Source: Natronosalvus caseinilyticus
GTDB lineage: Archaea > Halobacteriota > Halobacteria > Halobacteriales > Natrialbaceae
Assembly: GCF_017357105.1 (NCBI RefSeq)
Contig: NZ_CP071596.1
Location: forward strand, 2,790,001-2,854,000
Length of the DNA stretch: 64,000 nt
Direction: 5' to 3'
The first letter of the stretch is position 1. Every line of letters begins with the position of its first letter. A program made the translations under genes and the position numbers. The notes beneath the pieces were generated by a model, which was not told the DNA's origin, did no database searches, and worked only from the letters and a program-made list of their open reading frames with translations. Shown here in pieces: positions 27,940 to 60,266 of this stretch.

Positions 27940-29250
27940 ATGTCTATATTCGAATCAAACGGAATCTTCGACAATGATCGAGTACTCCGCCACGACTCAT
28001 ACACACCAGACGAATTCCTTGCACGCGAAACTCAAGAACAAGAACTCGTCAGTGCCCTCAAAAGCGTATACCGAGGCTCACCACCCAAAAACATCGTTCT
28101 GCGCGGCAAGAACGGCACCGGCAAAACCTCGCTAACAAAATCCATCCTGGAGACCCTTACCGAGGATTGCGCCGAAAAGGGCATCAACGTCACTACTGTC
28201 TACGTCAACTGTTCTGACTCCCACAACGACAAAAGCAGCTACGATACCACCCGAGAAATCACGAACTCCCTCCGGGAAATCCGAAATCCGTCCGGCTACG
28301 ACAAAATCGGGAGCGGCTATAGCCAAGGCGAACTATACGAGAAAATGTTCGACGAACTCGAAAGCTCCGGAGATACCAACATCATCGTCCTTGACGAACT
28401 CGACGGTCTAGGTGAAGACGAGATCCTCTATAAAATCTCACGTGCAACCACAAACGGAGATCTTCCGATGGACACCGACGTCGGACTCATCGGGATCACT
28501 AACGACCCAGGCTGCATCAAAAATTTCTCACCAACCGTCAAAGACAGTCTCTGCGAGGAATTCATTGAATTTAGCCCATACAAAGCTACCGAACTCGAAG
28601 CTATCCTGGGTGCCCGCAAAGAAGAAGCATTCGTAGATGGTGTCCTCAACGATGACGTCATTCCACTCTGCTCGGCCATCACCGCTCGAGACAGCGGCAG
28701 TGCCCGGCAAGCCCTCAAACTCTTGGAGAAATCGGGTGAAATTGCGGATGATGAAAATGCTGACAATGTCTCAGTTGAGCATGTCCGTGAAGCCGACACC
28801 CAGATAGACAAAGACGACGTGAAAAATTCTCTGAAAGGCCTTACGACCCAAGAGCGACTGGCCTTACTCTCCGTTGCCATCAAAAGTATCGATCCGTCGA
28901 GTTCGTCGAATAAAGTACCAACTTCCGACCTCTTTGAAGCATACGAAACCATCGCAACAAGACATGGTCATTCTGCACGGTCATACAACCGGTTCAGCGA
29001 CCGGCTCAAAGCTCTTGAACAGCAAAACCTCATCAGTCTCACGCCTACCCAGAAGTCGGGCTATCAAAACACGTTCGACCTGGAGGTCAACGCCGCGCTC
29101 CTTATCGAAGCATTCGATGAAATCGTCTCTAACGGGATGGCTGGGGAATCAAGCGGTCTCCAAAGGACAGTGGAAGCAATCATGAAACGAGCTAATGATG
29201 CAGGTGAAGTCAGCCGAAGAGACCTTACCCTCGAGACGTGCAGTTTTTGA
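27940..29250 (+). CDS. Orc1/Cdc6-family replication initiator
   Basis: 436 aa, AAA+ plus winged-helix. Walker A is RGKNGTGKTSL (Lys62) and Walker B IIVLDELDGLG (Asp152, Glu153). Sensor 1 is GITNDPG (~185), and the AAA+ lid has ARDSGSARQALKLLEKSGEI (~247-266). The C-terminal winged helix (~300-400) has RLALLSVAIK and YNRFSDRLKALEQQNLISL. It binds the adjacent origin and loads MCM. The product ends in RRDLTLETCSF, immediately followed by decayed sequence. The last residues may have been replaced by a rearrangement, although the wH domain is complete. Confidence 0.93.
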   Translation: MSIFESNGIFDNDRVLRHDSYTPDEFLARETQEQELVSALKSVYRGSPPKNIVLRGKNGTGKTSLTKSILETLTEDCAEKGINVTTVYVNCSDSHNDKSSYDTTREITNSLREIRNPSGYDKIGSGYSQGELYEKMFDELESSGDTNIIVLDELDGLGEDEILYKISRATTNGDLPMDTDVGLIGITNDPGCIKNFSPTVKDSLCEEFIEFSPYKATELEAILGARKEEAFVDGVLNDDVIPLCSAITARDSGSARQALKLLEKSGEIADDENADNVSVEHVREADTQIDKDDVKNSLKGLTTQERLALLSVAIKSIDPSSSSNKVPTSDLFEAYETIATRHGHSARSYNRFSDRLKALEQQNLISLTPTQKSGYQNTFDLEVNAALLIEAFDEIVSNGMAGESSGLQRTVEAIMKRANDAGEVSRRDLTLETCSF

Positions 29251-30824: not shown

Positions 30825-31223
30825 TTAGTAGGTTTCGACGTCGACGCCGAGGCGGTCGAAGTCGTCGACGTTCCGAGTGAGCACGGGTTCATCGACGACA
30901 TCGGCAGTCGCACCAATAATGACGTCACCATCGTCGACGGTGTTGCCCTCGTTCACAAGTTGCCCTGACAGTCGCCCGGCCTTCCGCATGACTGCTGTGT
31001 CGGCTGGATGGACTGGCTTCGAGGAGAGAACGTTCTCCACCTTTTCTCGCTCCGCTTTGGACTGATTCGATCGCTCGATCCCGTAGTAGAGCTCGAACAG
31101 CGTCATTGAGGACAGCCGCTGCTGGATGAGGTTCGTCTCCAGCTCGCGAGCCTTCTCAATGGCGTCTTCGTCGCCGTTCATCAGGTCGATGAGAAAAGAC
31201 GTGTCCAGCAACACTCTATGCAC
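30825..31223 (-). CDS. vapC: VapC-type PIN-domain toxin
   Basis: 132 aa PIN domain. The acidic triad and fourth residue are visible: Asp7 (VLLDTSFLIDL), Glu44 (TLFELYYGIE), Asp98/Asp100 (DDGDVIIGATA) and Asp120 (LTRNVDDFDRLG). VapC toxins are Mg2+-dependent RNases, often cutting tRNA. The start overlaps the antitoxin gene by 8 nt, the usual TA arrangement. It may stabilise the integrated element. Confidence 0.92.
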   Translation of the reverse strand: MHRVLLDTSFLIDLMNGDEDAIEKARELETNLIQQRLSSMTLFELYYGIERSNQSKAEREKVENVLSSKPVHPADTAVMRKAGRLSGQLVNEGNTVDDGDVIIGATADVVDEPVLTRNVDDFDRLGVDVETY

Positions 31224-31452
31224 CCTGCATCTCGTCGGCGACGTCTTCTAACTCGCCGCGGCGCCGTTCTCGTCGCTCCTCGATCGCCTCTTCTAGGGCC
31301 GCGGTCTCCTCGTCGGTGAAGATCCCGGCTAGTTCGAGGAGGGAGCGCTCGCCGGCGAGTCGGAGAACCACGTCGGTGAACGTCTCTTCCTCCTTCTTGT
31401 GGGCCTCCAACCGCTCGTAGGCTTCCTCGGAAAGCCTGATACTTTTAGACAT
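31216..31452 (-). CDS. vapB: VapB-type antitoxin
   Basis: 78 aa from the ATG at 31452 (MSKSIRLSEEAYERLEAHKK); an ATG two codons upstream is also in frame. The N-terminus is the short DNA-binding segment of archaeal VapB (DUF7557-like). The helical middle TFTDVVLRLAGERSLLELAG is typical, and the C-terminus (EEAIEERRERRRGELEDVAD) should wrap the toxin. It precedes vapC. A perfect inverted repeat at the start codon suggests autoregulation. Confidence 0.88.
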   Translation of the reverse strand: MSKSIRLSEEAYERLEAHKKEEETFTDVVLRLAGERSLLELAGIFTDEETAALEEAIEERRERRRGELEDVADEMQGA

Positions 31453-31454
31453 CT

Positions 31455-31470
31455 GCATACAGGTGTATGC
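31455..31470. promoter_or_regulatory. Probable VapBC operator
   Basis: GCATACAGGTGTATGC is a perfect 7-bp inverted repeat with a 2-bp centre, placed immediately upstream of (and touching) the vapB start. VapBC complexes commonly repress their own promoter through such palindromes. Confidence 0.6.
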
Positions 31471-31666
31471 AGCCCACCGACTCAAATGTTACCCTGCTAC
31501 CGTCCGGGGAGGTAGGTTCGCCTCACCCGTCTCTTTGAGTAAATGAGAGACAACGCTCGGTGAAACGAGAGATGTGAGTTGTAGACCAACTCAAGTCTCT
31601 CTTTTCAACTCCTTTCGGCAAACAAGGATAGTGGTGCAGGAAGACCAAAGGGAGATTGAATAGCGG

Positions 31667-32725
31667 TCAGTTACTGTTGCCGTTGGCGAATGCTGATCGC
31701 TCTTCAGGGTCGAAATTGCAAACGATTCTCTCGCTGACCTCGTCTGAACTTCGCGTCATTCGATGGCGACTCTGCTGCTCTACAATGGTGAATTCCGAAA
31801 GTCCATCGGGAATCGTAGAACACGAAACCATCCAGTCATTCTCGATATCACGGAGACAGTCGACAAAGACGTCATGGTCGAATTCCCCATTGTATTGGTC
31901 TTCTCCACCAACATAAGGGGGGTCAGCGTAGTAGAGGACATCTACAGCGGAATCATCGTATTTCTCGAGGATTGCTTGGAAGTCCTGACTCTCGATGGTG
32001 ACTTGATCGAACCGGCGAGCAAGCGAGTGGATTCTTTTTCGAGCATTGTCGAACGTACGTGCGGGTGACCGGCGTGCGCGTGTTTTGAAACCATTTGGTG
32101 ACGACGCGATGCCGAGAAACTGCATGTAGCGAAGTGAGAAGAACCGGCCTGCACGTGCGATGGGATCGTCTGGACGCACCCCGTTATAAAATTCTGCTAC
32201 CCATTGCTCGTACTGCGCTCGTGAATAGGGGACTGACTCGAGCCACTCAGATAGTTCGTCAGGTCGGTCTCGGAGGACTGTAAAGAATTGCGTCAGATCC
32301 TCGTTGTGGTCGTTGTAGATCTCGTACTTCGATCGGGGTTTATTGTACATGACGCCTGCTGCACCACCAAATACCTCGATATACGTATCGTGGGCCGGCA
32401 TCGTATCGACAATCCAATCGGAGAGCCCTCCCTTCGCGCCGGGATACGGAAACGTACCTGATTGGGTACTTTCCCGAGGGGTATAGCCCGAGGACATTTT
32501 GGGTGGGCCAGGATTTTGAGGATAGTATTGGCGTGGAGCACTTCCAGTTCCGCCTTCGCTCTCGAGTAGATCCAGGGTTTCCATCGCATCGAGAGTGTTC
32601 CGAACTGTCCGTTCAGTGGGTGGTTCGCCATCGATGGCGTCCCGAACATCAGACGCAGTGAACGATCGTTGGAACTCAATCTGCTGTAGCGTCGTAGACC
32701 AGATTCTGTCACGGTGTGTTGGCAA
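31667..32725 (-). CDS. Dam-like adenine-N6 DNA methyltransferase with N-terminal wHTH
   Basis: 352 aa if started at the TTG 32725, which overlaps the upstream gene's 3' end by 17 nt; there is no nearby in-frame ATG. Residues ~15-55 form a winged helix (FTASDVRDAIDGEPPTERTV). The D12 methylase core has FPYPGAKGGLSDWI (~92-105), VFGGAAGVM (SAM loop, ~118-126) and YYADPPYVGG (DPPY at ~267). D12/Dam enzymes methylate adenine, usually in a GATC-like site. Pairing with the upstream predicted nuclease suggests a Type II restriction-modification system, or an orphan methylase now that the nuclease is frameshifted. Confidence 0.88.
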   Translation of the reverse strand: MPTHRDRIWSTTLQQIEFQRSFTASDVRDAIDGEPPTERTVRNTLDAMETLDLLESEGGTGSAPRQYYPQNPGPPKMSSGYTPRESTQSGTFPYPGAKGGLSDWIVDTMPAHDTYIEVFGGAAGVMYNKPRSKYEIYNDHNEDLTQFFTVLRDRPDELSEWLESVPYSRAQYEQWVAEFYNGVRPDDPIARAGRFFSLRYMQFLGIASSPNGFKTRARRSPARTFDNARKRIHSLARRFDQVTIESQDFQAILEKYDDSAVDVLYYADPPYVGGEDQYNGEFDHDVFVDCLRDIENDWMVSCSTIPDGLSEFTIVEQQSRHRMTRSSDEVSERIVCNFDPEERSAFANGNSN

Positions 32726-33558
32726 CTTGTGAGAAGATATATTCCGACAAGTAGGCTGTTTCGGTCGCCACTAATTCTTGGCAGATATCTATGGAATCGC
32801 GGACGATCACCTCTGTAGCTTCGTCCAACTCATGGGGGGCCCCGAACCGGGGATACCCGTTCAACCTCGCCCTCTCGAATACTCTCTTGAAATTGATCCT
32901 TTTTCCAAGGAGAATGCCTAGGAAGCGTTTGCTGACCGTTTTCAAGATACCGGCTCGCATACAGTACTCCGCTGCCGGGCTGGCGATAGATTGCCACACG
33001 GTCACCATCGACCGCGAAGTCCCCATGGTCAAAGCAGCTGCCCCATCGGTTGTAGGTCGGAATATAGAGCTCGTGCTGCCCCAGCCATGGATCTGGAGGA
33101 GAGAATTCATCCCAGACAATGGGAGTGCCCAAAGCAAGCTCGCCGTCCGCAAGTGAGGCAACACCCAGTGATGGCGTCGAAGTCATAAATTCGTCCAACA
33201 GATCCTCTGTTTCCCGCCGGGCCTCGTGAGCATCCACAGTAAATACCCAGTAAACGGCGTAGCCAAATCGGAGATGGTCAATAGTTGCTCGTAGCCGATC
33301 TTTGTTCGATGCGGCAGTCTCGATCTCGACGACAGATCGCTGTGGCATATCGGGTGGAGAGTCGGAAAGGTGACAGCGAATATCTCCAATCAAATCGGAC
33401 GTTTTCTTCTCTGTTTCTATCGCCCCCACGCAACTAGGGTCTGCATGTAGTTTGTCGCTAATTGCAGCTTTGATTGCCCAGTGTTGTTGTGACTCGTTTT
33501 TCCTCTCGACTGTATGATCCAGCCGTATCGTTGGGTGGATGTCGACCAGGGCAGACAT
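32709..33558 (-). pseudogene. Frameshifted CoiA-like PD-(D/E)XK nuclease next to the methylase
   Basis: From the ATG at 33558 the frame reads a plausible nuclease. DLIGDIRCHL has Asp59 and SVVEIETAASNKD has Glu78-x-Glu80, followed by RLRATIDHLRFGYAVYWVFT, the layout of CoiA-like PD-(D/E)XK proteins. Near 32890 the frame degenerates (ESIREGEVERVSPVRGPP, stop at 32830). The -1/+1 frame continues sensibly as FKRVFERARLNGYPRFGAPH, ELDEATEVIVRDSIDICQEL to a stop at 32709, just inside the methylase start. One indel therefore splits the gene. It could be real inactivation, programmed slippage or an assembly error. Confidence 0.65.
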
Positions 33559-33664
33559 CTTATCAATTCTTGACCATCGCCCGGTATAACTAGACCTCAA
33601 CAAAACAATACTATGTCACGTTTAAGCCCATCGTATAGAAATGTCATCGAGATGTTCTACGTGT

Positions 33665-34547: not shown

Positions 34548-37500
34548 ATGGATACACTCCAGCAGATCACAGCGAAGGACATCGCTGGCTGGGATTCGCT
34601 CTCCGATGTCGCCTCTACCTTCGAAAAACGCGGTCTGAAAGTCCGTGAAAACCTCGGTGAAGACAACGAACTCGTCCTCCAGCTGACCGACCGAGAGTTC
34701 ATCGTGCTCATTGAGGCGGGTGCGGGCGAATCTGCCTCAGATTTCAAACCAGACGACCGACGCCGTCGAACTAACCTCGTCGCCACCAACGACTACGAGG
34801 AGTTCACATTCCTCACTCGCATTCGAGCGCTCGACGGGCAACAACACGGACGCATCAAGCATCAAAAACTCTCCTTCACCAAGGAGCAGATGACCAGCGA
34901 AGGCGGCGAGAAGAACACGATCCTCCAAAAGCTCAACAGCCTTGAGTACGGCTCAGCAGCTGCGATATACGACGATCTCTACGACACGAAGCAGGTCGTC
35001 AAGGAATTCTACCAGCAGTTCGAGACCCTTCGAACCGATCTCGTGCAGGAGGTCGCCGGCATCCCGGACGACCGCGGTGACGCCAAGCAGCGGTACGTCC
35101 AGGTCACCCTCGACCGGATGATCTTCCTTTACTTCATCCAAGAAAAACGTCTGCTCGACCGCGACCCGAACTACCTCCACGACCACCACAAACAACACGT
35201 AAACGAGGGCGAGAATGTCTACGAGGAGTTCTACGAGCCGCTGTTCTTCGATTTCCTCGCCGAGAACAAGAAGAGCACCGAGTTCGGGGCACTCCCATAC
35301 CTCAACGGCGGCCTGTTCTCGAAGAACCCAATCGAGGAGGAGTTCGAGGATGCACGACTCGGCGATACGACCGCGCGCACCAACGAACTATTCGGTGACA
35401 TCCTCGACTTCCTCTCAGACTGGAACTGGAACGTCGACGAGCGACTCGACATCGTCGATCCGAAGAACCTCTCGCCAGCCATCCTCGGCCACATTTTCGA
35501 GCAGACGGTCAACCAGAAGGAGATGGGGGCGTACTACACCCCCGAGGAGATCACCGGGTTCATGTCTCGGCGGACGATTCACCCATACCTTCTCGACCAG
35601 CTCAACGAGGAAGTCGGTGCCAATTACGAGGAGATTGACGACGTATTTGGGTTCCCCGCTCCAGACGCTGAGAGCGGCGTGGAAGTACTAGCCGATGGGG
35701 GAGCGGTCACGGCGCAGGTTCCGACCAAAAACGTCGAGACACAGCACGTGGAGACGCTGTATCACGACTTCCTGAAAGAAACTCGAGTCCTTGACCCAGC
35801 GGTTGGGAGCGGGGCCTTCCTGCTCGCTGCTCAGGAAGTACTGCTGGACATCTACATGCAGTGCATCGAGTTCTTCCAGCAGATGGACGGCAAAGGGAAA
35901 ACATGGGAACTGGAGGAGCGCACCGTCGAGGAACTGGAGACGATCAAAGAGGGACGCGGGAGTGCTTCGCTGTACGCGAAGCGGTCGATTATTCTCAACA
36001 ACCTCTACGGGGTAGACATCGACGACGGAGCAGTCGAAATCTGCAAGTTGCGTTTGTGGCTCTCGATGGTAGCTGACATTGAGGATGAGCCCAGTGAGGT
36101 GGAGCCACTGCCCAACATCGACTTCAATATTCGGCAAGGGAACTCACTTGTCGGCTTCACCGACCTAGTCGAATTAACTGATGATGGGGATGCCTCGCTT
36201 AATAATTGGGGAGCCGGCGTTGGGTCTGGGGTACGAGAGCTATATGAAGACGTAATCGAGGCGATTGAGCGCCATCGGGAAGCAACAAGTGCGACTGAGG
36301 CAGCGAATGCACGTCGGATGGCAGAGTCAAAAATCGACACCCATAGTGAGGAACTCAATAAAAAGGTTATTGAGCAGTTCCGCGCTGCCGGGATCGAGTC
36401 AGTCGATCAGGAGTCTGTCAAAGACTTTCACCCGTTCCATTGGGTGCTCGAATTTGCCCCTGTGTACGAGACTGGCGGCTTTGATGTCGTTATTGGAAAT
36501 CCACCATGGGATCGTATTAAGCCACTTCGTGACGATTTCTTCTCGAAATACGACGAAACTTTCCGTTCACGACTTCCGGACGACAAGGACGAGGTGCAAG
36601 AGGAACTCCTCGCTGATGAGGAGATTGCACAGGGTTGGCAGGAGTATCAGGAGGAGATGGAGATACGTGCTGAGTACTTCAAGAATACTCCGGAGTATGA
36701 GCTACAACGTCCAGAGATTGATGGGCGAATCAACCCCAGTACAAACGACCTCTCATCGCTGTTCTTTGAGCGAGTGTTTAGCTTGGCAGGAGACTCCTCT
36801 CGTGTCGCACAAATCCTTCCGGGCGCGATATACAACGGTGCGTCGTGTAAAGACCTAAGAAGCCACTTGCTGGACAATACGCAGCTGGATGTTCTAACCA
36901 TCTTTGAGAATCACGGCATCTTCGAGCAAGTTCACAACCAGTACAAATTCGGAGTGGTCATCTTCAAAAATGGTGGCTCAACTGACCACGTCTCGGGGAG
37001 ATACATGGTAGGCGACCTTTCCATCTTTGAAGATTTCGATGAAAAGGCCATACGTATCCCTCGAGATGTCCTTGAAAAATACTCTCCAGAGGCAGGAATC
37101 TTCCCCTATATTGAGTCGGAACAAAAGTTGGAGGTGCTCAAGACCATCATCAAAAAACCACCAATCGCTCCCAGTGATGCCCCTGCGGGCTATATGGAAC
37201 CATACCAGGGACTCCGACGAACGAGCGACTCAGATCGATTTGTCGATAGGTCGGAAGCTGAGTACCCGGTCTATGGTGGAAAGAACGTCTACCAGTATTC
37301 ATACACTCCAGACTTCATCAACGACGTACATGAACCGGAGTTCTGGAGTGTTGAAGAAGAGACAGACCCAGCTCGAAGCGCAAAGCAACGGATGCGCGAG
37401 AAGACAGTCCGTGACCTCAAGTCCGCAATTTACGAGGCGTTCGACGGTACGGGTTCGCAGAAAGGGTTTGTAGATGACCTGCTAAAGGAACATCGAGGCA

Positions 37501-38159
37501 AGCCTCTCTCCGAGAACGACGTACTCTTGGATTGTACTGAATTCCGTATCGGTCTCCGCAGGATTACCAATTCAACGAACGAGCGGACGCTCATCGCATC
37601 GGTGTTACCGAAAGGCATCATCTGCCACAACACGTTACTAACCATCCCGAGTTACCAGATCACCCCGTATGAGGAGGGGCTATCTGAAGAACCCCTGCAT
37701 AACTTTTACGAGCGGATGTTCACTGATCATGAGCTGTTTGCCAAGCTCGGCCTGCTCAATTCAATTCCGCTTGATTACCTCCTCAGGACAAAGGTGGATA
37801 CAGGCATTGTAATGTACAAATTCAAAGAGTCGCAGATGCCTAACCTCTCTGAAGGTGACAACTGGTTCCACTACATCGCTGAGCGGGCTGCTCAGTTGAA
37901 TTGTTACGGGAATGAGTTCGCGGAGATGCGCGAACGGCTCGGTGGGGTTGAGTCCGCAACTGATCCGCAGAAGCGAAACGAGATACAGGCAGAAATAGAC
38001 GCTGCCGCCTTCCATGCGTATGGGCTTGACCGACGGGAAACCCAATTCATTCTTGACGATTTCCACCGGGTATCGAATCCACGAATTATGACTGAGGAGT
38101 ACTTCGATATGGTGTTTGAGAAATTCGACCAGTTAGAGGCAGAAGGCCCGTTCAAGTAA
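34548..38159 (+). CDS. Large Eco57I/PglX-like DNA adenine methyltransferase (possible Type IIG R-M protein)
   Basis: 1203 aa. A TTTATG box 27 nt upstream supports the ATG at 34548. N-terminal ~1-110 is a region that could be a degenerate nuclease or dimer domain. GAYYTPEEITGFMSRRTIHP lies at ~327, motif I VLDPAVGSGAFLL at ~415-427, KRSIILNNLYGVDIDDGAVE at ~475, and motif IV VVIGNPPWDRI at ~647-657. The last 500 residues are the target-recognition half. It modifies adenine in a specific site; whether it also cuts is unclear. Together with NucS-like and SNF2 partners it forms a defence cluster, but BREX PglZ/BrxC and DISARM DrmA/B are absent. Confidence 0.87.
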   Translation: MDTLQQITAKDIAGWDSLSDVASTFEKRGLKVRENLGEDNELVLQLTDREFIVLIEAGAGESASDFKPDDRRRRTNLVATNDYEEFTFLTRIRALDGQQHGRIKHQKLSFTKEQMTSEGGEKNTILQKLNSLEYGSAAAIYDDLYDTKQVVKEFYQQFETLRTDLVQEVAGIPDDRGDAKQRYVQVTLDRMIFLYFIQEKRLLDRDPNYLHDHHKQHVNEGENVYEEFYEPLFFDFLAENKKSTEFGALPYLNGGLFSKNPIEEEFEDARLGDTTARTNELFGDILDFLSDWNWNVDERLDIVDPKNLSPAILGHIFEQTVNQKEMGAYYTPEEITGFMSRRTIHPYLLDQLNEEVGANYEEIDDVFGFPAPDAESGVEVLADGGAVTAQVPTKNVETQHVETLYHDFLKETRVLDPAVGSGAFLLAAQEVLLDIYMQCIEFFQQMDGKGKTWELEERTVEELETIKEGRGSASLYAKRSIILNNLYGVDIDDGAVEICKLRLWLSMVADIEDEPSEVEPLPNIDFNIRQGNSLVGFTDLVELTDDGDASLNNWGAGVGSGVRELYEDVIEAIERHREATSATEAANARRMAESKIDTHSEELNKKVIEQFRAAGIESVDQESVKDFHPFHWVLEFAPVYETGGFDVVIGNPPWDRIKPLRDDFFSKYDETFRSRLPDDKDEVQEELLADEEIAQGWQEYQEEMEIRAEYFKNTPEYELQRPEIDGRINPSTNDLSSLFFERVFSLAGDSSRVAQILPGAIYNGASCKDLRSHLLDNTQLDVLTIFENHGIFEQVHNQYKFGVVIFKNGGSTDHVSGRYMVGDLSIFEDFDEKAIRIPRDVLEKYSPEAGIFPYIESEQKLEVLKTIIKKPPIAPSDAPAGYMEPYQGLRRTSDSDRFVDRSEAEYPVYGGKNVYQYSYTPDFINDVHEPEFWSVEEETDPARSAKQRMREKTVRDLKSAIYEAFDGTGSQKGFVDDLLKEHRGKPLSENDVLLDCTEFRIGLRRITNSTNERTLIASVLPKGIICHNTLLTIPSYQITPYEEGLSEEPLHNFYERMFTDHELFAKLGLLNSIPLDYLLRTKVDTGIVMYKFKESQMPNLSEGDNWFHYIAERAAQLNCYGNEFAEMRERLGGVESATDPQKRNEIQAEIDAAAFHAYGLDRRETQFILDDFHRVSNPRIMTEEYFDMVFEKFDQLEAEGPFK

Positions 38160-38186
38160 CACCAACAGCGATACTGCTAACAAACG

Positions 38187-39218
38187 ATGGTCTATCACGT
38201 CGACAACGAAGGCGTCACAGCACTTGAGCCCACCAGCTTCGATGCTCTCCACCTAACCGAGGCAGACATCGAAGAGTGGATAATCGAGACGCCCTCGATA
38301 CTCGGTGAAGACTTACTCGTGGTCGCCTCCCAGTATGCCAAATTTGACCGGACTGCCGAACGTCCTGACGTGTTGGCACTCGACCCAGACGGGAAGCTCG
38401 TGGTCATCGAACTGAAGCGAGACAGCGCCGACAAGACGACTGACCTCCAGGCGATTAAGTACGCGAGCTATTGCTCGACCATCAGCGCAGAGGAACTCCA
38501 GCAGGATCACCGGGCGTTCTGGAACAACCGCCGCGACGAAGACGACCAACTCACGCCTGAAGCTGTCGGCGAGCTATTCAGTGAATTCCTCGGTGAGGAC
38601 GTCGCCACCACAGAGGACGGCTATGCGGACTTCGTCCTGGACGACCGACCACGGATATTGCTTGTCGCGGGCAGCTTCGGCCCGGAGATCACAACCCCTG
38701 TCGTGTGGCTCGAACGTGAGTACGGGATGGACATCACCTGCATCGAACTGGACGTTCACCAGCGCCACGAAGAGGTGTTCGTCAGCGCTCGGCAAGTGCT
38801 CCCCATACCAGAAGCTGAGGAATACATGGCCAAGCGCCGGCAGAAGGAACGTCAGCAGAGTCGGTCGTCGAGTCGGGCAGACAGGGCGATCACCGTCTTA
38901 CTGGAGGCGGGGCTCGTCGAGGAAGGGGACATCGTCCTGTTCGACGAGGAAAGCCTACCAGACGATGCTGAGCGCGTGTACGACCCGGCGGACGACTTCT
39001 GGCGCGGTCGAATCACGGGAAAGACTGGTCGGAGTGACAACGTCGAGTGGCTGGAGAACGGTGCAGAGTACTCGTTCACTGCTCTGGCTCAAGAGATACT
39101 CGAACAAGCGACCGGTCGTGAATTCAACGTCAATGGATACCCGTACTGGCTGCATCCAGAGCACGAGATGAGTCTATCTGAACTCCGACGTTCGAAGGTC
39201 GGCGATATTGACTGGTGA
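38187..39218 (+). CDS. NucS/DUF91-like PD-(D/E)XK endonuclease
   Basis: 343 aa, 27 bp after the methylase. Residues ~25-140 hold the nuclease core: ADIEEWIIETPSILGEDLLV, then RPDVLALDPDGKLVVIELKR. Asp61 and Glu75-x-Lys77 are the catalytic triad, and TTDLQAIKYASYCS follows. It resembles the NucS/DUF91 nuclease domain. The C-terminus (~230-340) has no clear domain; it contains RADRAITVLLEAGLVEEGDI and TGREFNVNGYPYWLHPEHEM. It is probably the cutting subunit paired with the methylase. Confidence 0.8.
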   Translation: MVYHVDNEGVTALEPTSFDALHLTEADIEEWIIETPSILGEDLLVVASQYAKFDRTAERPDVLALDPDGKLVVIELKRDSADKTTDLQAIKYASYCSTISAEELQQDHRAFWNNRRDEDDQLTPEAVGELFSEFLGEDVATTEDGYADFVLDDRPRILLVAGSFGPEITTPVVWLEREYGMDITCIELDVHQRHEEVFVSARQVLPIPEAEEYMAKRRQKERQQSRSSSRADRAITVLLEAGLVEEGDIVLFDEESLPDDAERVYDPADDFWRGRITGKTGRSDNVEWLENGAEYSFTALAQEILEQATGREFNVNGYPYWLHPEHEMSLSELRRSKVGDIDW

Positions 39219-39451
39219 ATCTGTTAATGAAGAGCGTTGAACCGGGTGACTGTGTCCGAATCGACATCCCCAATCGAGGCGACCCGGACTTCCAATACCA
39301 TGGCGAGCACGGAGAGGTTATCGAGATACTTCAGGACGATGCGGGTGCATCTACTGGTGACGAGCGGGACTCCTACATCTACCGTGTACGGTTGGCCTCA
39401 GGTACTCAGGTGGATATGAGGTGGCGTGACCTACGGCCATCCCTCGAATAG
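39215..39451 (+). CDS. Small SH3/KOW-like barrel protein
   Basis: 78 aa from the GTG at 39215, which overlaps the nuclease TGA (GTGA); an ATG at 39227 is in frame. The pattern PGDCVRIDIPNRGDPDFQYH, HGEVIEILQDDAG, YRVRLASGTQVDMRWRDLRP is a small beta barrel of the SH3/L21e kind. It was probably made with the nuclease as a DNA/RNA-binding accessory of the system. It is the last gene of the three-gene rightward operon. Confidence 0.65.
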   Translation: MNLLMKSVEPGDCVRIDIPNRGDPDFQYHGEHGEVIEILQDDAGASTGDERDSYIYRVRLASGTQVDMRWRDLRPSLE

Positions 39452-39600
39452 AACGGTGTCGTTCGGTGGAAACCCCCAAAACCTGACCGGGAATATCGGC
39501 TGTACTCGCATAGTGAGCGCGTCTTAGCCTCGGAGCGATAGATTGCGATGACCTACCAGAATAACCACGATTTTAACGATATCACTCAATGATATAGACC

Positions 39601-40129
39601 ATGGTAGAAGTCGTGAAAGAGGGGTTTCTGAATAAGGACATTCGAGAACGGAAGAAATCGAGGATGTTTCCTGAGGACGATTTTGAACGAATTCTTGCAG
39701 CCGTCAAGGACACACCAAACAGTGTATTCGAGAAGAGTCAACAAGATCTGGACAGTTATGTGGCGAAGGCACTCCCAGACTACCACTTCGAACAGGATTC
39801 AGATATAGGACTGAATCCGAAGTGCAAATTATGGACACCGGAATTCAACCAGCGTAGACCTGTATCACCCAGGAGAACGGATTGCTATTGAGATTGAGAA
39901 GAGCCAACAGAAACGCGTGAGCGATGACATACTAAAGTTCGTCAAGGGCGGGAAGACACAACGAAGCAACCGCAAGAAAATCGAATTTGGATGTCTGATT
40001 GTTCCGGTGAATTGGGGTGAGAGGAACAACGATCTCTACAACGAAGCCATGCGGTGTATGAAGTTCATTAGGAGCGTGTTGCACGTTGAGGATATCGCAG
40101 TAATCGGATATCGAGAACGATCAGTGTGA
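39601..40129 (+). pseudogene. Frameshifted PD-(D/E)XK restriction-nuclease-like gene
   Basis: The ATG at 39601 opens a frame (MVEVVKEGFLNKDIRERKKS...). It loses sense after KLWTPEFNQR near 39852 and stops at 39891. In the next frame the sequence continues VDLYHPGERIAIEIEKSQQK then DDILKFVKGGKTQRSNRKKI to the TGA at 40127. Joined, it gives a ~175-aa protein with a catalytic D-x(11)-E-x-E-K motif. One extra base near 39852 accounts for the break. It is convergent with the SNF2 gene, 1 bp apart, so the locus is compact and the indel may be recent. Confidence 0.7.
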
Positions 40130-40130
40130 A

Positions 40131-43100
40131 CTACTGACCGATAACTCCCCAACAAATGAGCCGAGCTTGCACGGCACTCTCGCCAACGAGCGTCGTCTGG
40201 TACTCGGCAGAAGCTTCGATATTGTCCTCGATGAATGCCTCCAGTTCGACGAGGAATTCCTCGACTGGCCAATCGCCGAGCGAAGTGTAGTCCGGGTGTT
40301 CCCGGAAGGTCTCCCGCAATACTCTGTCTTCATCCGTGTGCTCCAGCTTAACTCGATCAAGCTGGTCGAACAGCTCATTCGTCCACTCCCCGACCGTATC
40401 GTGCCCATCTACGGGTGCGGGTTGATCACCGTACTGTGGCAGGATTCGCATCTGCATCATATCGAGGAGCATCTCCTGCGTGGCCGACTGGCCACCGCCA
40501 CTGAACACCTCCTCGACCTGGCCTTCACGTATCTCTTCTAACCGCTGGGAGAGATGCTCCTCGACCGACTCTCTGTTCGCAATTACTCTGTCGGTGTTCC
40601 CGGAAAGCTGCTCTCCTTGGGTTTCCGGTTTGATGGCCAATGCACCAACTGGTCGCTCCTTCAGATCACCACTGAACGGCTTGTAATACAACGCCCGCCG
40701 TACACGCCCGAGCGGCGCATCTTCGGGTTCCCCAGTCTCTTCGTTCTCGAACCACAGGTGGACAAGGCCGAACACACCTGGACGTGGCCCACTATCGTGG
40801 CCAATGGCGTTCGTGTAGAGAAACTCTCGCTCGTCGGTCTGCTCTTCGAAATAGTCCTCTGCAAACTCGAAGTCTTCTGAAGAGAGTCCATATTCGTCGT
40901 TGAGCTCTTCTTTGAGTAGCACGCGCTCGAATGCCGCGTTTTCGTCACTTCCTGCGTTCCGTAGCAGCGGATTCTTCGAGGTGTCGTCGAGTTCGTTGTA
41001 GTCGGTCACCTCACGGGATTCCCGAATCGACGATTCGATCTCTTCAATCTCCAGTTCTCCAATCGTCTTTTCTGTCTCGACTCCTGCTTTTTCCAGCACT
41101 GCATCTTCGTTCGGGTCGAGGATGTTGTTCTCCTTCCCAACGATCAGCGCGATGTCGTTGATCTTCGCCTGCAAGCGCTGAAGGAGCTGGATTGCCGCCT
41201 CGATGTCACCGTCAGGGTAGAAATTGTGCACGTATTTGTCCGCCGTCGAACCAATGCGATCGACACGACCAACACGCTGAACAATTCGCATGGGATTCCA
41301 CGGTAGATCATAATTTACGACCACCGAGATGTCTTGAAGATTCACACCCTCGCTGAGGGTATCCGTGGCGACGACGTACTGCAACTCTGTCTCGTCACTC
41401 TCAGCCAGGGTCTGCTGGTATCCTGACGCCTCTGGAGCGAACCGTTTGATGATGTCTTGCTTGTTCTCGTCACCGCCCTTCACCACGGCACTGTTCTCCA
41501 TCGTCATCGGTGATGACTCGTTGTCGACGAGTGTTCGGTGAACGTAGTCCGCAGTCGCGCGGTACTGGGTGAAGATGAGTACCTTCTGATCGTACCCGTT
41601 CAGGACGTCGGCTAACCGGTCAATTTTGGGGTCACGGAACTCGCGGAGCGTGAATACGGCTTCGTAGAAGTCCAGTGTGGCACTGTCGGCTTCGCTCAAA
41701 TCATGCCGGGGATAGAGGATCGGGTTTGGGTCGTCCTCAGGCACGTCTGGAAGAACCGCGGCACCATGGTCAGCAAGCCACTGTTCCAACTCGACCTCCA
41801 TGTCCGCTATCGCCCCGGAGTCACGGGCCACACGACCGATGAATCGGGAAAGGAAGTACGCGAGGAGTGTCAGGTCTTCGCGAATGTACGTTTTCACCTC
41901 TCCCACCGTAGCATCGGCTAGTTCGTCGTTTGCATCGCCCCCATCTGCCTGAAGGGCTCCACTATCGAAGCCGAACTCCTCAAGCGTTTGCTCCAGATCT
42001 TCAGCTGCGTCAGCTCCTTCAACGAAATCCTCTAGCGTCGATCCAGGCTCGTCGGTGCCAAACGTACGTAGGACGTCGATATCTTCGTCCTCCGGTAACC
42101 CATCTAGGAACCCAAGGAGCGCCCGTTCACTCTCGTGGAGGGTCTGCACCGATTGGACGAACGCGTAGGTAGACGACTCAAGGCGTTTCAAGAGATTGAG
42201 TTTGTAGAGTGCTTTCAGTGTACCCCCTGCTTGTGGGTTCTTGATGGTGATGTGTGGGAGGTGGAGGGCGTCCATCACGTCCGGCAACATTCGGTAAATG
42301 GGCTGGTATGCGGGAGGAAGCGAGTACTGTTCCTTGTGGAGTTCTGGCGGCTTGAAGCTCATATCGAACTCGTCTTGATCGGTCAGCGTCTCTTTGACGT
42401 GCTTTCGAGTTCGGAGCACCATCACCTCGTTTAGTATCTCGGAGATCTCATCCGAGTGGCGCTTCAGTTGCTCTGTCATCTGGCGCTGTTTCTCCTCGGA
42501 GGCCTCCTCTTTGCCGGCAGCAACTCGCTTACGCTCCGCAGCGAGGTCGATATAGTCGTCGAAAGCACTGAATTTCAGCGACGCCTTGTTCATCAGCTCG
42601 TTTTCGTCGGTGAACAATCCAATGAGGTTCTTGAGGTCGCTAGCCGAGTTGTTGATCGGCGTCGCAGTCAGCATGATCATCGTGTTGTTCCGGAGAAGTC
42701 GCACGTTCGCATGCCGACGAGTTCCCTTGTAATCGTCGTCGTCAACCGGGTTTGGTCGCCACTTCCCGTGGTTCCGGAATCGGTGTGCCTCGTCGATGAG
42801 CACTACATCGAATCGGTCGTCGAGAGCGGTCACTTCTTCATGGGTGAGGTTCTGGAATTTGCTGATGCTCATGACCTGCAAGTGTTTTCCGTCAACCTCG
42901 AGTCCGAAGAACGGGTCTCCGTCTTCGTCTGTCGCGTCTTGAAGAAGATCACGCCACTGGTCGGTCAGGTTGGCCGGGACGATAAGGAGACAATGATCAC
43001 CTTGTTCCCGGTAGTCGTAGAGGAGTTCGCTTCCGATAAACGACTTCCCTAGGCCGACTGAATCGGAAATAATGCAGCCGTCATATTGTGATAGCTTGGT

Positions 43101-43940
43101 CTTGGCACTCTCGTATCCGAGCGTCTGGAAGTAGTAGAGTGGGCTGTCGCGGACACTGACGTTGCCGTTCAGCTCGTCGTACGCAAGGAGCTTGTACATC
43201 TCGAACGGTTCGAGATACGTTCCGAGATTTGCTTCATCTTCGACTTCATCATCGTCCTCTTCCTGCTGTTCCTTCCACTGTTGGTAGCGATCGGTCTCCT
43301 CAATGATATTGATAATCTCTTCCGAGAATTCCTCGCCGTTGGCCCATTGGTTGTCGTACCATTCCTCGAACGCTTCTGCATCACTCCCGTTCTGACTGGT
43401 CAGATTGAGCTCGACGTTGTGACGGTGGCCTGACTGTGAGAAGTTCGATGATCCGACGATAGTCACCGCGCCTCGCTGGTCGCGGTCACCGTTGCGTAGA
43501 CTCGGGTCATCCGTCGCACCGCGGAAGCAGGCGCCTTTCGCATGAAAATATCCCGAGTCGGGATTTCGAACGCGAACATCAACGAGCCCCTCTGCAATGA
43601 AATCGCGCAATCGGTCAAGTCGTTCAATCTGCGCGTTGTTCAGCTCTGCAACATCTTCCTTAACTTCCTGCTCGAACTGCTCGCGTAGCGTTTGGCCTTC
43701 GCTGACTTCGTCGACGGTACGTTGGTCAGTCTTTCGCCCCATGAGGATACGAAATGGGGCTTGTTCGAGTTCTTCCGGATCACGGAGATTTTCAAGATCT
43801 TCTTTGAAGAGATCGAAGCCAGATAAGTAGAAGTAGCCCGTTGCGATGCGGATTTCCTCGCATTCGGGGACGACGGTCTTGTAAACGTCTTCGAGCGTGT
43901 TGTTCGAGTTATCTACAAGCGCGTCAAGCGAGGGTAACAT
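40131..43940 (-). CDS. PLD-nuclease/SNF2 helicase fusion protein
   Basis: 1269 aa. Residues ~30-180 are a phospholipase-D-type nuclease with one HKD motif (GYFHAKGACF, His133/Lys135; IVGSSNFSQSGHRHN, ~161). SNF2 ATPase: DSVGLGKSFIG (Walker A, ~292), VVLIDEAHRFRN (~378), MLTATPINNSASDL. The helicase C half has KVLIFTQYRATADYVHRTLV and VQRVGRVDRIGS (~888). The last ~300 residues are unassigned. Such fusions act in defence by translocating on and cutting DNA. It converges with the methylase/nuclease operon, and its own promoter would lie near 43990. DISARM DrmD is an SNF2 protein but lacks this PLD head. Confidence 0.9.
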   Translation of the reverse strand: MLPSLDALVDNSNNTLEDVYKTVVPECEEIRIATGYFYLSGFDLFKEDLENLRDPEELEQAPFRILMGRKTDQRTVDEVSEGQTLREQFEQEVKEDVAELNNAQIERLDRLRDFIAEGLVDVRVRNPDSGYFHAKGACFRGATDDPSLRNGDRDQRGAVTIVGSSNFSQSGHRHNVELNLTSQNGSDAEAFEEWYDNQWANGEEFSEEIINIIEETDRYQQWKEQQEEDDDEVEDEANLGTYLEPFEMYKLLAYDELNGNVSVRDSPLYYFQTLGYESAKTKLSQYDGCIISDSVGLGKSFIGSELLYDYREQGDHCLLIVPANLTDQWRDLLQDATDEDGDPFFGLEVDGKHLQVMSISKFQNLTHEEVTALDDRFDVVLIDEAHRFRNHGKWRPNPVDDDDYKGTRRHANVRLLRNNTMIMLTATPINNSASDLKNLIGLFTDENELMNKASLKFSAFDDYIDLAAERKRVAAGKEEASEEKQRQMTEQLKRHSDEISEILNEVMVLRTRKHVKETLTDQDEFDMSFKPPELHKEQYSLPPAYQPIYRMLPDVMDALHLPHITIKNPQAGGTLKALYKLNLLKRLESSTYAFVQSVQTLHESERALLGFLDGLPEDEDIDVLRTFGTDEPGSTLEDFVEGADAAEDLEQTLEEFGFDSGALQADGGDANDELADATVGEVKTYIREDLTLLAYFLSRFIGRVARDSGAIADMEVELEQWLADHGAAVLPDVPEDDPNPILYPRHDLSEADSATLDFYEAVFTLREFRDPKIDRLADVLNGYDQKVLIFTQYRATADYVHRTLVDNESSPMTMENSAVVKGGDENKQDIIKRFAPEASGYQQTLAESDETELQYVVATDTLSEGVNLQDISVVVNYDLPWNPMRIVQRVGRVDRIGSTADKYVHNFYPDGDIEAAIQLLQRLQAKINDIALIVGKENNILDPNEDAVLEKAGVETEKTIGELEIEEIESSIRESREVTDYNELDDTSKNPLLRNAGSDENAAFERVLLKEELNDEYGLSSEDFEFAEDYFEEQTDEREFLYTNAIGHDSGPRPGVFGLVHLWFENEETGEPEDAPLGRVRRALYYKPFSGDLKERPVGALAIKPETQGEQLSGNTDRVIANRESVEEHLSQRLEEIREGQVEEVFSGGGQSATQEMLLDMMQMRILPQYGDQPAPVDGHDTVGEWTNELFDQLDRVKLEHTDEDRVLRETFREHPDYTSLGDWPVEEFLVELEAFIEDNIEASAEYQTTLVGESAVQARLICWGVIGQ

Positions 43941-51233: not shown

Positions 51234-52127
51234 TTAGAACTCGCCCAACGTCTTTTGAGCCAAATCCTTCTCAAGATCTGCAATAAATTCATCTGCCTTG
51301 TTCCGCAGAGCTTGGAACGAACTCGATTTGTGGAACCACGCCGGCTGATCGTCCTTCTGCACCTTCCGCAAATGCTCATCTAACCCCTTCTGATTGTACT
51401 TGTCAAGGAACTTCTCACCCCACGTCCGCAACTCCTTCTTTTTCTCCTCACTCATTGAATCCCAGAGCTTGTGCGACTCGGCCAATAACTCGTCTACGTT
51501 GAACGGGTCTGAGTCGTAGTCATTCGCCAGCTGAATCGCAGCATTCAGCATATAGATACAGAACTGAGTCTGATCCTCATCCTCAGCATCAAATGGGTAG
51601 TAATCCGTAGGGATATCCTTTCCATGGGGTACCTCAACCGGGAACGCATCATCAAGGTCGGGCTCCCCAAAGCCTTCTGACCCAACAATCTCTATACGAA
51701 GATTCGCATCCCCAATGTGTGCCTCGAACTGTACTGTTGTGAAATCGAACTCACTCAGGTCATGGGCATCGGCCAAGTCACGGAACGAAGAGTACGAAAA
51801 GTCGGCACTCAACTCATCGGGAGGAACACCTTGGACAGCCCCTCGAAGCACTAGTTGGTCGGGATTCTGAACGGCAGTTTCGTACCGCTCATTCTGGTGG
51901 TCTTTCAGTTGATATGACTTGAAATCCAATAGCAAACTATGCTTGCGCCGATGTGCCGTTAGAATCAAATCCGGCTGAATATAGTCCCCTTTGATCATGA
52001 ACTCTGGCTCAATGATGTCCACAGTATATCCTAACTTAGCTAGCGTGTCTGGGAACCGATCGTCCAATTGGCACAAACCAATCCACGCATTCATCTGTAT
52101 CGTGTGGGGCGACAGATAGTACGTCAT
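51234..52127 (-). CDS. PD-(D/E)XK-nuclease-like protein of a two-gene module
   Basis: 297 aa. The N-terminal half has EPEFMIKGDYIQPDLILTAH then SLLLDFKSYQLKD. Asp53 (QPDLIL) and Asp68-x-Lys70 (DFK) form a PD-(D/E)XK-type site, followed by an amphipathic helix (HQNERYETAVQN). The C-terminal ~80 residues are helical (MSEEKKKELRTWGEKFLDKY). The start is shared with the upstream stop (TAATG), so it is coupled to the 389-aa gene. I infer a nuclease effector. Confidence 0.7.
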   Translation of the reverse strand: MTYYLSPHTIQMNAWIGLCQLDDRFPDTLAKLGYTVDIIEPEFMIKGDYIQPDLILTAHRRKHSLLLDFKSYQLKDHQNERYETAVQNPDQLVLRGAVQGVPPDELSADFSYSSFRDLADAHDLSEFDFTTVQFEAHIGDANLRIEIVGSEGFGEPDLDDAFPVEVPHGKDIPTDYYPFDAEDEDQTQFCIYMLNAAIQLANDYDSDPFNVDELLAESHKLWDSMSEEKKKELRTWGEKFLDKYNQKGLDEHLRKVQKDDQPAWFHKSSSFQALRNKADEFIADLEKDLAQKTLGEF

Positions 52128-53296
52128 TATGCAGTCAGACCAACCTTCGAGTTCTTCGGGTCACTGCGCTCACCAAAGGAAGCCTCTGCATCGTAGTACC
52201 GCTGGATATTCGAGAAAATTCGCAAGGCAGTATTCCCGCAAGCGTCATCCGGGAGATAGAGGCGAATCCAATCTCGCTTGATTTCCAGTGTGAAACTATC
52301 GTTGTTGTGGAGATCCGTCCCGCGAACCTTGTAGTAGTCGTCTGCAATCCAGGTACCAACCCCCCAGAGTCGGAGTGGTTTCGTGGCGGACGTGAAGCTG
52401 TCAGCGAACTCTTTCAGGTTCTCAACCGTGTTGGCGAGGTTGATTACTATCGGCGTTCCCTCGATAGATTGTCCTGATGAATGGCGTTCGCCTTCCTCAG
52501 CCTCTATTTCTCGAACCGGATATCCAATCCGGCCTTCTTCTTCGATTCCTCGGATGAGGTCTGCATAGAGCTCACGGATGATTTCGACAAACGACAGATG
52601 CGCTTGGATGTCATCGCCGCCTCTGGTGGTTATACGGCCATTGTTGTCGATCCGCTCAATCACGACCCCTTCCTCCATTTCCCGGCGAATCTTCACCGAA
52701 GACAAAGACATGAACCGCTTCAGGTCAGCATCATTCAACGCATCCAGCAGCCAGCTCGTTCCCTGGCCTGAACTCTGAATCGACAGCTCACCAAATGGGA
52801 GATACTGGTCAATATACTCCTCAGAGAACACATCCTCAGCATCGTAATTGATGCCTGCCCCTTGGAACTCACCAAGTTTAGTGAAGTACCGCTGTAGCTG
52901 CGCCGGGAACCAGAGATAGTCGAGCCCGCTTCGCTCCGCCATAATCAAGTCCTCCATCGCATCCTTCGCTGGTCGAGACTTCTCGATCGAATAGAACGTC
53001 CAGAATCGCTCATTCTGGCTATCCAAGTAGAACGTCAGAATTTCTTCCTCGTCTTCGTCGCTCGAAGTGTCGATGAGCACTTCGAACAGGCTGTAATCCA
53101 CCTTCTCGACATTTACATGCTCGAACTGTTCCTCAAGAGAGGTGGCCTCAATGTTGGTTTCGACGAGGAACGATTTGAGCATGTTCTGTTTGTAGTTCAG
53201 TTTCTGATCTTCCAGCAGCTGGTCATAGGTTCCTTCGATGACGTGCTGAAAGTGTTCGTATAGTTCCCGTCGATCCGTCGGGTTTAGAGGTGGCAT
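52127..53296 (-). CDS. Unknown 389-aa partner of the nuclease-like gene
   Basis: No known domain recognised. N-terminal ~1-90 is helical (RELYEHFQHVIEGTYDQLLE), the middle includes EYIDQYLPFGELSIQSSGQG and LKRFMSLSSVKIRREMEEGV, and the C-terminal ~90 residues are beta-rich (LRLWGVGTWIADDYYKVRGT, SFTLEIKRDWIRLYLPDDAC). It may be a sensor or recognition subunit. It is the first gene of the coupled pair and its promoter would lie near 53330. Confidence 0.65.
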   Translation of the reverse strand: MPPLNPTDRRELYEHFQHVIEGTYDQLLEDQKLNYKQNMLKSFLVETNIEATSLEEQFEHVNVEKVDYSLFEVLIDTSSDEDEEEILTFYLDSQNERFWTFYSIEKSRPAKDAMEDLIMAERSGLDYLWFPAQLQRYFTKLGEFQGAGINYDAEDVFSEEYIDQYLPFGELSIQSSGQGTSWLLDALNDADLKRFMSLSSVKIRREMEEGVVIERIDNNGRITTRGGDDIQAHLSFVEIIRELYADLIRGIEEEGRIGYPVREIEAEEGERHSSGQSIEGTPIVINLANTVENLKEFADSFTSATKPLRLWGVGTWIADDYYKVRGTDLHNNDSFTLEIKRDWIRLYLPDDACGNTALRIFSNIQRYYDAEASFGERSDPKNSKVGLTA

Positions 53297-60022: not shown

Positions 60023-60266
60023 TGATGATTCACCATTCCGGTGACTTCCGTATAAGTCGTTCCCACGAACGTATTTCGTGGCCGAACCGCAGCAGAGATA
60101 TGAACTGTTGTTTACTTCGGTTCCTGACGACATTTACCCCACCTTCGGGAGGGAAAGGCTCGACTTTGCAACGACTTCCTGCCTTCTACAACACAGCAGC
60201 GATGCTACTTGCGGGAGTTGTCCTGAATGGCGAATCTACCTTTGAAAACGTATATTGGGCGACGTG

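What the first reader, a model, noticed from the sequence alone, without database searches (positions are those of the whole stretch)
34548..43940. Defence cluster: large methylase, NucS-like nuclease, SH3-like protein, PLD-SNF2 helicase
A GxYYTP/NPPW methylase, a DUF91/NucS-like nuclease and a small barrel protein form a coupled operon converging on a PLD-SNF2 fusion, with wHTH regulators upstream. BREX needs PglZ/BrxC and DISARM needs DrmA/DrmB; neither is visible. The set may be a distinct methylation-guided system in which the helicase couples translocation to PLD cutting.
Basis: partly seen in the sequence, partly recalled or inferred. Interest (0 to 1): 0.75.

Follow-up and report, generated by a model that had tools for sequence, protein, structure and literature searches.

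The report
Two-gene restriction system with swappable specificity
A salt-loving archaeon carries a two-protein DNA defence: a DNA-marking enzyme paired with a motor-plus-scissors protein. In relatives a linked recombinase gene and flipped gene copies point to a switch that changes which DNA sequence is protected, a type of switch I found described only in bacteria.

Summary
The unit is not the four-gene operon proposed. The conserved core is the 1203-aa Eco57I-type adenine methylase plus the PLD-SNF2 protein. They are adjacent in 41/41 haloarchaeal loci, and the same pairing occurs in about 15 bacterial or archaeal contigs. The NucS-like protein (NucS nuclease + RAMA domain), the SH3-like protein and a frameshifted nuclease sit in a variable slot that elsewhere holds CBASS, HNH/DUF4268 or TBP genes. 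No PglZ, DUF499 or YprA/DrmA-type gene lies beside the module. Most likely it is a two-polypeptide ATP-dependent restriction-modification system: the methylase sets specificity and protection, and PLD-SNF2 translocates and cuts. Support: the methylase N-terminal half co-diverges with the helicase (Mantel r 0.93-0.96), while the specificity half does not (r 0.11). The window's own gene shows that specificity swap against near-identical siblings. In 14 related loci a divergent, N-terminally truncated copy of the specificity half, perfect 38-80 bp inverted repeats, both orientations and a linked tyrosine integrase (13/13 against 0/27 single-methylase loci) point to a specificity inversion switch, which the window itself lacks. 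No activity has been tested. Verdict: new variant of a known kind.

The parts
34548..38159 (+). Eco57I/Type IIG-like N6-adenine methylase with specificity region (core gene 1, 1203 aa)
   Evidence: Pfam Eco57I 1.9e-25, PADLOC REase_MTase_IIG 9.9e-70; adjacent to PLD-SNF2 in 41/41 loci
34548..34967 (+). ~140-aa N-terminal domain of the methylase (aa 1-140); co-diverges with the PLD-SNF2; no ExK/ExE nuclease motif
   Evidence: Mantel r=0.93; AF2 helix-helix then five strands, no PDB match at E<=1e-3; unlike the N-terminus of stand-alone Type IIG relatives
35793..35819 (+). methylase motif I (DPAVGSGAF)
   Evidence: invariant in 18 homologues
35856..35879 (+). MQCIEFFQ coding stretch; in related invertible loci the matching stretch is the perfect inverted repeat at which the cassette flips (single copy here)
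36282..37894 (+). exchanged specificity (TRD) segment of the methylase, replaced relative to near-identical sibling loci; contains NPPW (36498-36509)
   Evidence: 85-88% DNA identity before and after, no extended blastn match between, versus Haloarcula CBA1115, L031, L032, L033
38187..39218 (+). NucS_C-type PD-(D/E)XK nuclease with C-terminal RAMA domain (accessory; PADLOC PDC-S11)
   Evidence: present in 8/41 loci
39215..39451 (+). small SH3-like protein (accessory), GTG start overlapping the preceding stop
39601..40129 (+). frameshifted PD-(D/E)XK-like nuclease gene (2-bp deletion near 39850)
   Evidence: intact homologues in G330 (L033) and Haloarcula sp. CBA1115 (L198)
40131..43940 (-). 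PLD(HKD)-SNF2 helicase-nuclease (core gene 2, 1269 aa)
   Evidence: Pfam PLDc_2, SNF2-rel_dom, Helicase_C; PADLOC C3a139 'HKD+Snf2' 3e-77; motifs invariant; 49/391 Halobacteria genomes
43341..43940 (-). PLD/HKD nuclease domain (H133, K135, N166, E177 invariant)

Best explanation
The locus is a two-polypeptide, ATP-dependent restriction-modification module. The Eco57I/Type IIG-like methylase recognises a specific sequence through its C-terminal target-recognition region and methylates adenine in host DNA. The PLD-SNF2 protein docks on the conserved N-terminal half of the methylase, translocates along unmodified incoming DNA and cuts with its PLD site. It thus plays the HsdR/Res role, while the methylase is a fused modification-and-specificity subunit. 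Specificity evolves, and in relatives is actively switched, by exchanging only the C-terminal half. The genes between the two core genes, including the NucS-RAMA nuclease and SH3-like protein here, are interchangeable auxiliary defence cargo. Shown here: the conserved pair, intact catalytic motifs, N-half co-divergence, specificity exchange, and inversion with a linked integrase in relatives. Inferred: methylation, protein contact, translocation, cleavage and phage defence.
For: Pair in 41/41 loci from 27 genera, convergent or co-directional, and in about 15 non-haloarchaeal contigs. All catalytic motifs are conserved. No PglZ, DUF499 or MZB beside the module. The nearest single-methylase relatives are stand-alone Type IIG enzymes with an extra N-terminal nuclease-like domain (D...IEAEP.NK) and no PLD-SNF2 neighbour. 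The PLD-linked methylases lack that domain and carry a different N-terminus that tracks the helicase (r=0.93-0.96), whereas the specificity region does not (r=0.11, 349/2000 permutations as high). Specificity swap in the window itself. Invertible cassettes with perfect inverted repeats, both orientations, silent-cassette dN/dS 0.05-0.08 and a linked integrase in 13/13.
Against: No activity is shown. The N-terminal domain has no recognisable fold match, so docking on it is inference. Co-divergence of adjacent genes can arise from joint transfer without physical contact, although the neighbouring specificity half escapes it. The PLD-SNF2 could be a separate restriction module that merely shares the locus. 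PADLOC already has an 'HKD+Snf2' profile (C3a139) that also hits Type-2 BR-like helicases, so the helicase family itself is not new.
Confidence: 0.74

Rival explanations
1. A four-component system as first proposed: methylase, NucS-like nuclease, SH3-like protein and PLD-SNF2 act together, with the NucS-RAMA protein reading methylation state and the helicase delivering it.
For: Same order and tight spacing in the window and in Haloarcula sp. CBA1115. NucS-like proteins of >=75% identity occur in 8 genomes, all inside this module (hypergeometric p about 1e-8). The RAMA domain is a predicted modified-base reader.
Against: 33 of 41 loci lack the NucS-like gene and are otherwise intact. It carries a stop codon in G330 and is split in G344 while both core genes stay open. 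NucS relatives of 48-56% identity occur away from any PLD-SNF2. The SH3-like family is found in 144/391 genomes.
Confidence: 0.12
2. A degenerate or minimal BREX-related (Type-2 BR), DISARM or ARMADA locus that lost its ATPase or YprA component but works with copies elsewhere in the genome.
For: The same HKD-Snf2 helicase architecture is described for Type-2 BR (PMC12839542). ARMADA and DISARM pair an SNF2/RapA-like helicase with a PglX-like methylase (PMC12458937). PglZ and DUF499 hits exist elsewhere in this genome.
Against: The pair lacks those partners as a rule, not just here. Most PLD-SNF2 genomes have no DUF499 at all (15/48 do, at other places), and MZB is absent from the window genome. 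The methylase is Type IIG-like, not the MTase_III-type partner of the Type-2 BR-like locus tested.
Confidence: 0.07
3. Two independent genes sharing a defence island: an orphan (phase-variable) methylase acting mainly in gene regulation, and a separate PLD-SNF2 nuclease.
For: Specificity switching by inversion is typical of phasevarions in bacteria (e.g. PMC4948785). Convergent genes are not co-transcribed.
Against: Strict 41/41 linkage across 27 genera, co-divergence of the methylase N-half with the helicase, and co-directional operons in L054-L056 and L067-L070.
Confidence: 0.07

Closest known systems
Type-2 BREX-related (BR) system (PMC12839542)
   Same: N-terminal HKD(PLD) nuclease fused to a Swi2/Snf2 helicase, paired with an N6-methylase; same PADLOC helicase profile C3a139
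   Different: BR systems are defined by a DUF499 ATPase plus DUF3780; no DUF499 is at these loci and no DUF3780 was seen. The methylase is a ~1200-aa Eco57I/IIG-like protein, not the ~640-aa MTase_III-type partner
Type IIG restriction-modification enzymes (Eco57I-like; haloarchaeal relatives L071-L081)
   Same: Same methylase and specificity regions, 42-62% identical from about residue 140 or 477 to the end
   Different: Type IIG carries its own N-terminal nuclease and has no helicase; here that domain is replaced and a PLD-SNF2 gene is always adjacent
Type I / Type ISP restriction enzymes
   Same: Predicted logic: fused methylase-specificity part plus an SF2 translocase-nuclease; specificity is changed by swapping recognition domains
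   Different: Nuclease is PLD, not PD-(D/E)XK; motor is SNF2-type on a separate polypeptide; no HsdS
DISARM class 1 (DrmMI + DrmD + DrmA/B/C) and ARMADA
   Same: SNF2-type helicase plus PglX/Eco57I-like methylase; DISARM also uses a PLD nuclease (DrmC)
   Different: The YprA-type helicase (DrmA/ArmC) and DUF1998 protein that define them are not at these loci; PLD is fused to the SNF2
Inverting specificity systems (pneumococcal hsdS; reported bacterial pglX inversions)
   Same: Recombinase-driven inversion joins a constant N-terminal part to alternative recognition halves
   Different: Found here in archaea, on a Type IIG-like methylase of a PLD-SNF2 pair, with a linked 223-aa tyrosine integrase. 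The window has no second cassette or integrase of this kind

Membership tests
Two-gene PLD-SNF2 / Eco57I-methylase module (the group proposed here) | PLD-SNF2 and large Eco57I-type methylase adjacent | tested here: met
   41/41 loci; Haloarcula CBA1115 and other named plasmids
Type-2 BR system | HKD-Swi2/Snf2 helicase | tested here: met
Type-2 BR system | DUF499 AAA+ ATPase in the locus | tested here: not met
   PF04465 search of 48 genomes: no hit near any PLD-SNF2 locus; in the window genome at C1:322786, 2.5 Mb away
Type-2 BR system | DUF3780 gene | not tested
   no DUF3780 profile search was run on the neighbours; none of the Pfam-scanned locus proteins hit it
BREX | PglZ in the locus | tested here: not met
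   PF08665: only hit in this genome is on contig 2
BREX | BrxC ATPase | not tested
   no BrxC profile was searched; no large ATPase ORF other than the PLD-SNF2 lies near the window pair
DISARM / ARMADA | YprA-type helicase with DUF1998/MZB (DrmA-DrmB, ArmC) | tested here: not met
   PF09369: no match in the window genome; elsewhere not adjacent to the module
Type IIG RM enzyme | nuclease domain fused N-terminally to methylase and specificity regions | tested here: not met
   N-terminal 140 aa lack the D...IEAEP.NK motif of the stand-alone relatives; hhalign probability 1.4%; no fold match
Type IIG RM enzyme | Eco57I-type methylase with TRD | tested here: met
ATP-dependent RM (Type I/III-like) | SF2 translocase plus nuclease needed for methylation-sensitive cleavage | not testable with these tools
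   motifs present; biochemistry needed
PADLOC PDC-S11 | NucS-like/DUF4268 nuclease profile | tested here: met
   window 38187-39218 at 4e-57; another PDC-S11 subfamily sits in the same slot in L059
Phase-variable (inverting) methylase locus | second inverted specificity cassette plus inverted repeats plus recombinase | tested here: not met
   absent in the window; met in 13 related loci

The most novel reading that the evidence does not exclude
An undescribed class of ATP-dependent restriction-modification, spread across archaea and bacteria, in which a PLD-SNF2 motor-nuclease is the restriction subunit of a Type IIG-derived methylase. In haloarchaea its specificity is actively switched by a dedicated tyrosine integrase that inverts the constant N-terminal half between two recognition halves, which would be a phase-variable restriction system in archaea.
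Probability: 0.58. Interest if true: 0.76.

Novelty: new variant of a known kind. Interest (0 to 1): 0.62.

Why it matters
It would add a compact restriction-modification architecture in which the modification and specificity part and the motor-nuclease part are cleanly separated into two proteins, making the coupling between sequence recognition and translocation-driven cutting directly testable. The related invertible loci give a ready-made archaeal epigenetic switch: constant half, two recognition halves, defined repeat and linked integrase. That allows tests of whether archaea vary their methylome, and their virus resistance, within a clone. The papers available here describe such switching only in bacteria. 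The variable slot is also a place to look for further auxiliary defence genes.

Tried and rejected
A decayed Type IIG nuclease at the methylase N-terminus was considered (both share an 'IEA' stretch) and rejected: profile comparison gave 1% probability and Foldseek no usable match. BREX, DISARM, ARMADA and BR membership rejected. A serine recombinase (cluster c2) was first suspected as the invertase; it is not at the invertible loci. My ORF filter had hidden the real candidate, a 223-aa tyrosine integrase, which appeared in the RefSeq annotation and was then found in 13/13. The ~288-bp imperfect repeats first taken as recombination arms are just homologous coding sequence; the flip point is the perfect repeat at their inner edge. 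Phage records gave only weak helicase matches. PADLOC 'C3a139' could not be traced in the paper library. Literature searches found no description of this pair or of an inverting archaeal methylase; subscription journals and REBASE were not available.
Full report
OBSERVATION. The window is haloarchaeal. G+C falls from about 0.65 to about 0.52 at 23 kb and stays low to the end, with tyrosine integrases at 23.3-25 kb, an Orc1/Cdc6 gene at 27.9 kb, a GmrSD restriction gene at 58 kb and ParA at 62.5 kb: an integrated plasmid-like defence island. The homologue is intact in G330 and in Haloarcula sp. CBA1115, where all five genes stand in the same order.

WHAT IS CONSERVED. PLD-SNF2 relatives occur in 49 of 391 Halobacteria genomes, 27 of 86 genera. 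I pulled 40 other loci and mapped them with the window. The large Eco57I-type methylase is beside the PLD-SNF2 in 41 of 41; the pair is convergent in most and co-directional in seven. The NucS-like gene is in 8 of 41 and the SH3-like gene in a minority with shifting position. The slot between or beside the core genes elsewhere holds a CBASS operon (two cyclases plus Cap15), an HNH gene plus a DUF4268 nuclease, a TBP, and others. The NucS-like gene carries a stop codon in G330 and is split in G344 while both core genes stay open. The upstream wHTH genes have no counterpart among the predicted genes of the 40 other loci. So the unit is methylase plus PLD-SNF2; the rest is cargo.

BEYOND HALOARCHAEA. 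A genome-contig scan and motif check found PLD-SNF2 genes with a large N6-methylase nearby in about 15 bacterial or archaeal contigs (e.g. L104, L105, L107, L108, L111, L115, L116, L119, L128, L167, L180), while another block of hits (L121-L165) has the gene sizes of Type-2 BREX-related systems. One of those, L121, has an MTase_III-type partner, whereas L105 and L116 have Type IIG-like partners. Most of this rests on motif patterns and ORF sizes, not on full annotation.

NOT BREX, BR, DISARM OR ARMADA. PglZ, DUF499 and MZB profiles were searched in the carrier genomes. None lies beside the module; in the window genome PglZ is on the other contig, DUF499 is 2.5 Mb away and MZB is absent. The definitions were taken from PMC12839542 and PMC12458937. 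BrxC and DUF3780 were not searched separately.

THE METHYLASE IS A RE-PURPOSED TYPE IIG-LIKE ENZYME. Its closest relatives outside the pair are mostly 1280-1310-aa stand-alone proteins aligned only from about residue 140 or 477 onward. They carry an N-terminal nuclease-like domain (D...IEAEP.NK) and no PLD-SNF2 neighbour. The PLD-linked methylases have a different ~140-aa N-terminus, shared between the two haloarchaeal sub-clades (hhalign 95%, E 3e-8) and not detectably related to the Type IIG nuclease (1.4%). The AF2 model is moderately confident (helix-helix then five strands) and has no PDB match at E<=1e-3.

CO-DIVERGENCE AND EXCHANGE. Over 30 loci, pairwise identity of the PLD-SNF2 correlates with methylase residues 1-140 (r=0.93) and 141-436 (r=0.955), less with 437-670 (0.71), and not with 671-1080 (0.11; 349 of 2000 permutations as high) or 1081-1203 (0.135). 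The window shows this directly. Against Haloarcula CBA1115, L031, L032 and L033 the DNA is 85-88% identical up to about 36.15-36.28 kb, has no extended match until about 37.75-38.05 kb depending on the sibling (two short matches inside), and is about 84-87% identical again through the NucS-like gene. The specificity segment alone has been replaced.

A SPECIFICITY SWITCH IN RELATIVES. In 14 loci a methylase gene stands divergently next to an N-terminally truncated copy of its C-terminal half, starting at aa ~437 or ~476-488. A perfect 38-80-bp inverted repeat (54 bp in many) marks the inner edge; it encodes MQCIEYFQRLEAEG(K/Q)GWE in one group and GVDI(D/E)..AVEICK in the other. G375 has insertions in its cassette and is less clear. 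Both orientations occur. In the complete Halorussus vallis plasmid NZ_CP100003 two copies of the module have opposite orientations, with flanks 99.98-100% identical and only the central segment inverted. G148/G197 and the two copies in G293 show the same. Silent cassettes have dN/dS 0.05-0.08, so they are under selection as coding sequence. A 223-aa tyrosine integrase (Phage_integrase E 5.5e-12) lies next to the distal copy in 13 of 13 such loci with flank coverage and in 0 of 27 single-methylase loci; a few of the 27 have short upstream coverage. The window has one methylase, no second cassette and no such integrase, so the switch is a property of relatives.

THE NUCS-LIKE PROTEIN. Catalytic residues are invariant in 16 homologues. 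The best PDB sequence match is NucS 2vld and the best structural matches are EndoMS/NucS. Its C-terminus is a RAMA domain in 11 of 16 members by Pfam, though not in the window's own sequence at E<=1. Copies at >=75% identity occur only inside this module (8 genomes). A modification-reading auxiliary nuclease is the simplest guess.

MECHANISM. Best reading: a two-polypeptide, ATP-dependent restriction-modification system. The methylase recognises and protects; PLD-SNF2 docks on the methylase N-half, translocates on unmodified DNA and cuts. Shown: gene pairing, intact motifs, co-divergence, exchange, inversion and integrase linkage in relatives. Inferred: methylation, docking, translocation, cutting, defence, and that the integrase is the invertase.

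NOVELTY. HKD-SF2 helicase fusions as restriction effectors are known (Type-2 BR, PMC12839542; PbeA, PMC10853773), PADLOC has an 'HKD+Snf2' profile and NucS-like PDC-S11 profiles, and inverting specificity genes are known in bacteria (e.g. PMC4948785; bacterial pglX inversion is from my own knowledge). The combination as a minimal pair and the archaeal integrase-linked switch were not found in the papers searched, including a survey of archaeal restriction-modification systems (PMC10609329). Hence 'new variant of a known kind'. Absence from this open-licence library is not proof of absence.

Noticed in passing
L046, L050, L060, L086-L094, L097, L098; e.g. Halorussus vallis plasmid NZ_CP100003 about 17.4-28.1 kb and 138.7-149.7 kb: Invertible methylase cassettes with perfect 38-80-bp inverted repeats and an adjacent 223-aa tyrosine integrase; both orientations on one complete plasmid.
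   Followed up: yes
window 31667-33603 (-): D12-class adenine methylase gene next to a 257-aa ORF with a nuclease-like E-x-E stretch and no family match: possibly a separate Type II restriction-modification pair.
   Followed up: partly
window 30825-31485 (-): PIN-like toxin ORF (132 aa) and overlapping 89-aa ORF: a VapBC-like toxin-antitoxin pair.
   Followed up: no
window 51234-53296 (-): Two overlapping genes (297 and 389 aa, no Pfam hit); homologues of the first (cluster c15), followed by a similar-looking second gene (c40), lie directly beside the PLD-SNF2 in L048 and L049: a candidate two-gene defence unit.
   Followed up: partly
window 58184-60133 (-): GmrSD-type modification-dependent restriction enzyme (both Pfam domains) in the same island.
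   Followed up: no
window 23339-24981 (-) and 27940-29250 (+): Tyrosine recombinase genes at the G+C drop and an Orc1/Cdc6 gene: likely end and replication gene of an integrated plasmid.
   Followed up: partly
window 39601-40129 (+): PD-(D/E)XK-like nuclease gene frameshifted by a 2-bp deletion; intact in Haloarcula sp. CBA1115 and G330.
   Followed up: yes
L034, 12.9-15.6 kb: A CBASS operon (two cyclases plus Cap15-type 2TM effector) lies inside the methylase / PLD-SNF2 slot.
   Followed up: partly
L037 7382-7981 (-): A TATA-binding-protein gene sits in the slot between methylase and PLD-SNF2.
   Followed up: no
G296, G338, G375, G383 loci, about 1 kb past the PLD-SNF2 start: A TIR-domain gene (two adjacent ORFs in one Halorussus vallis copy) and a membrane-protein gene recur beside the module on several plasmids: a possible further defence system.
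   Followed up: no
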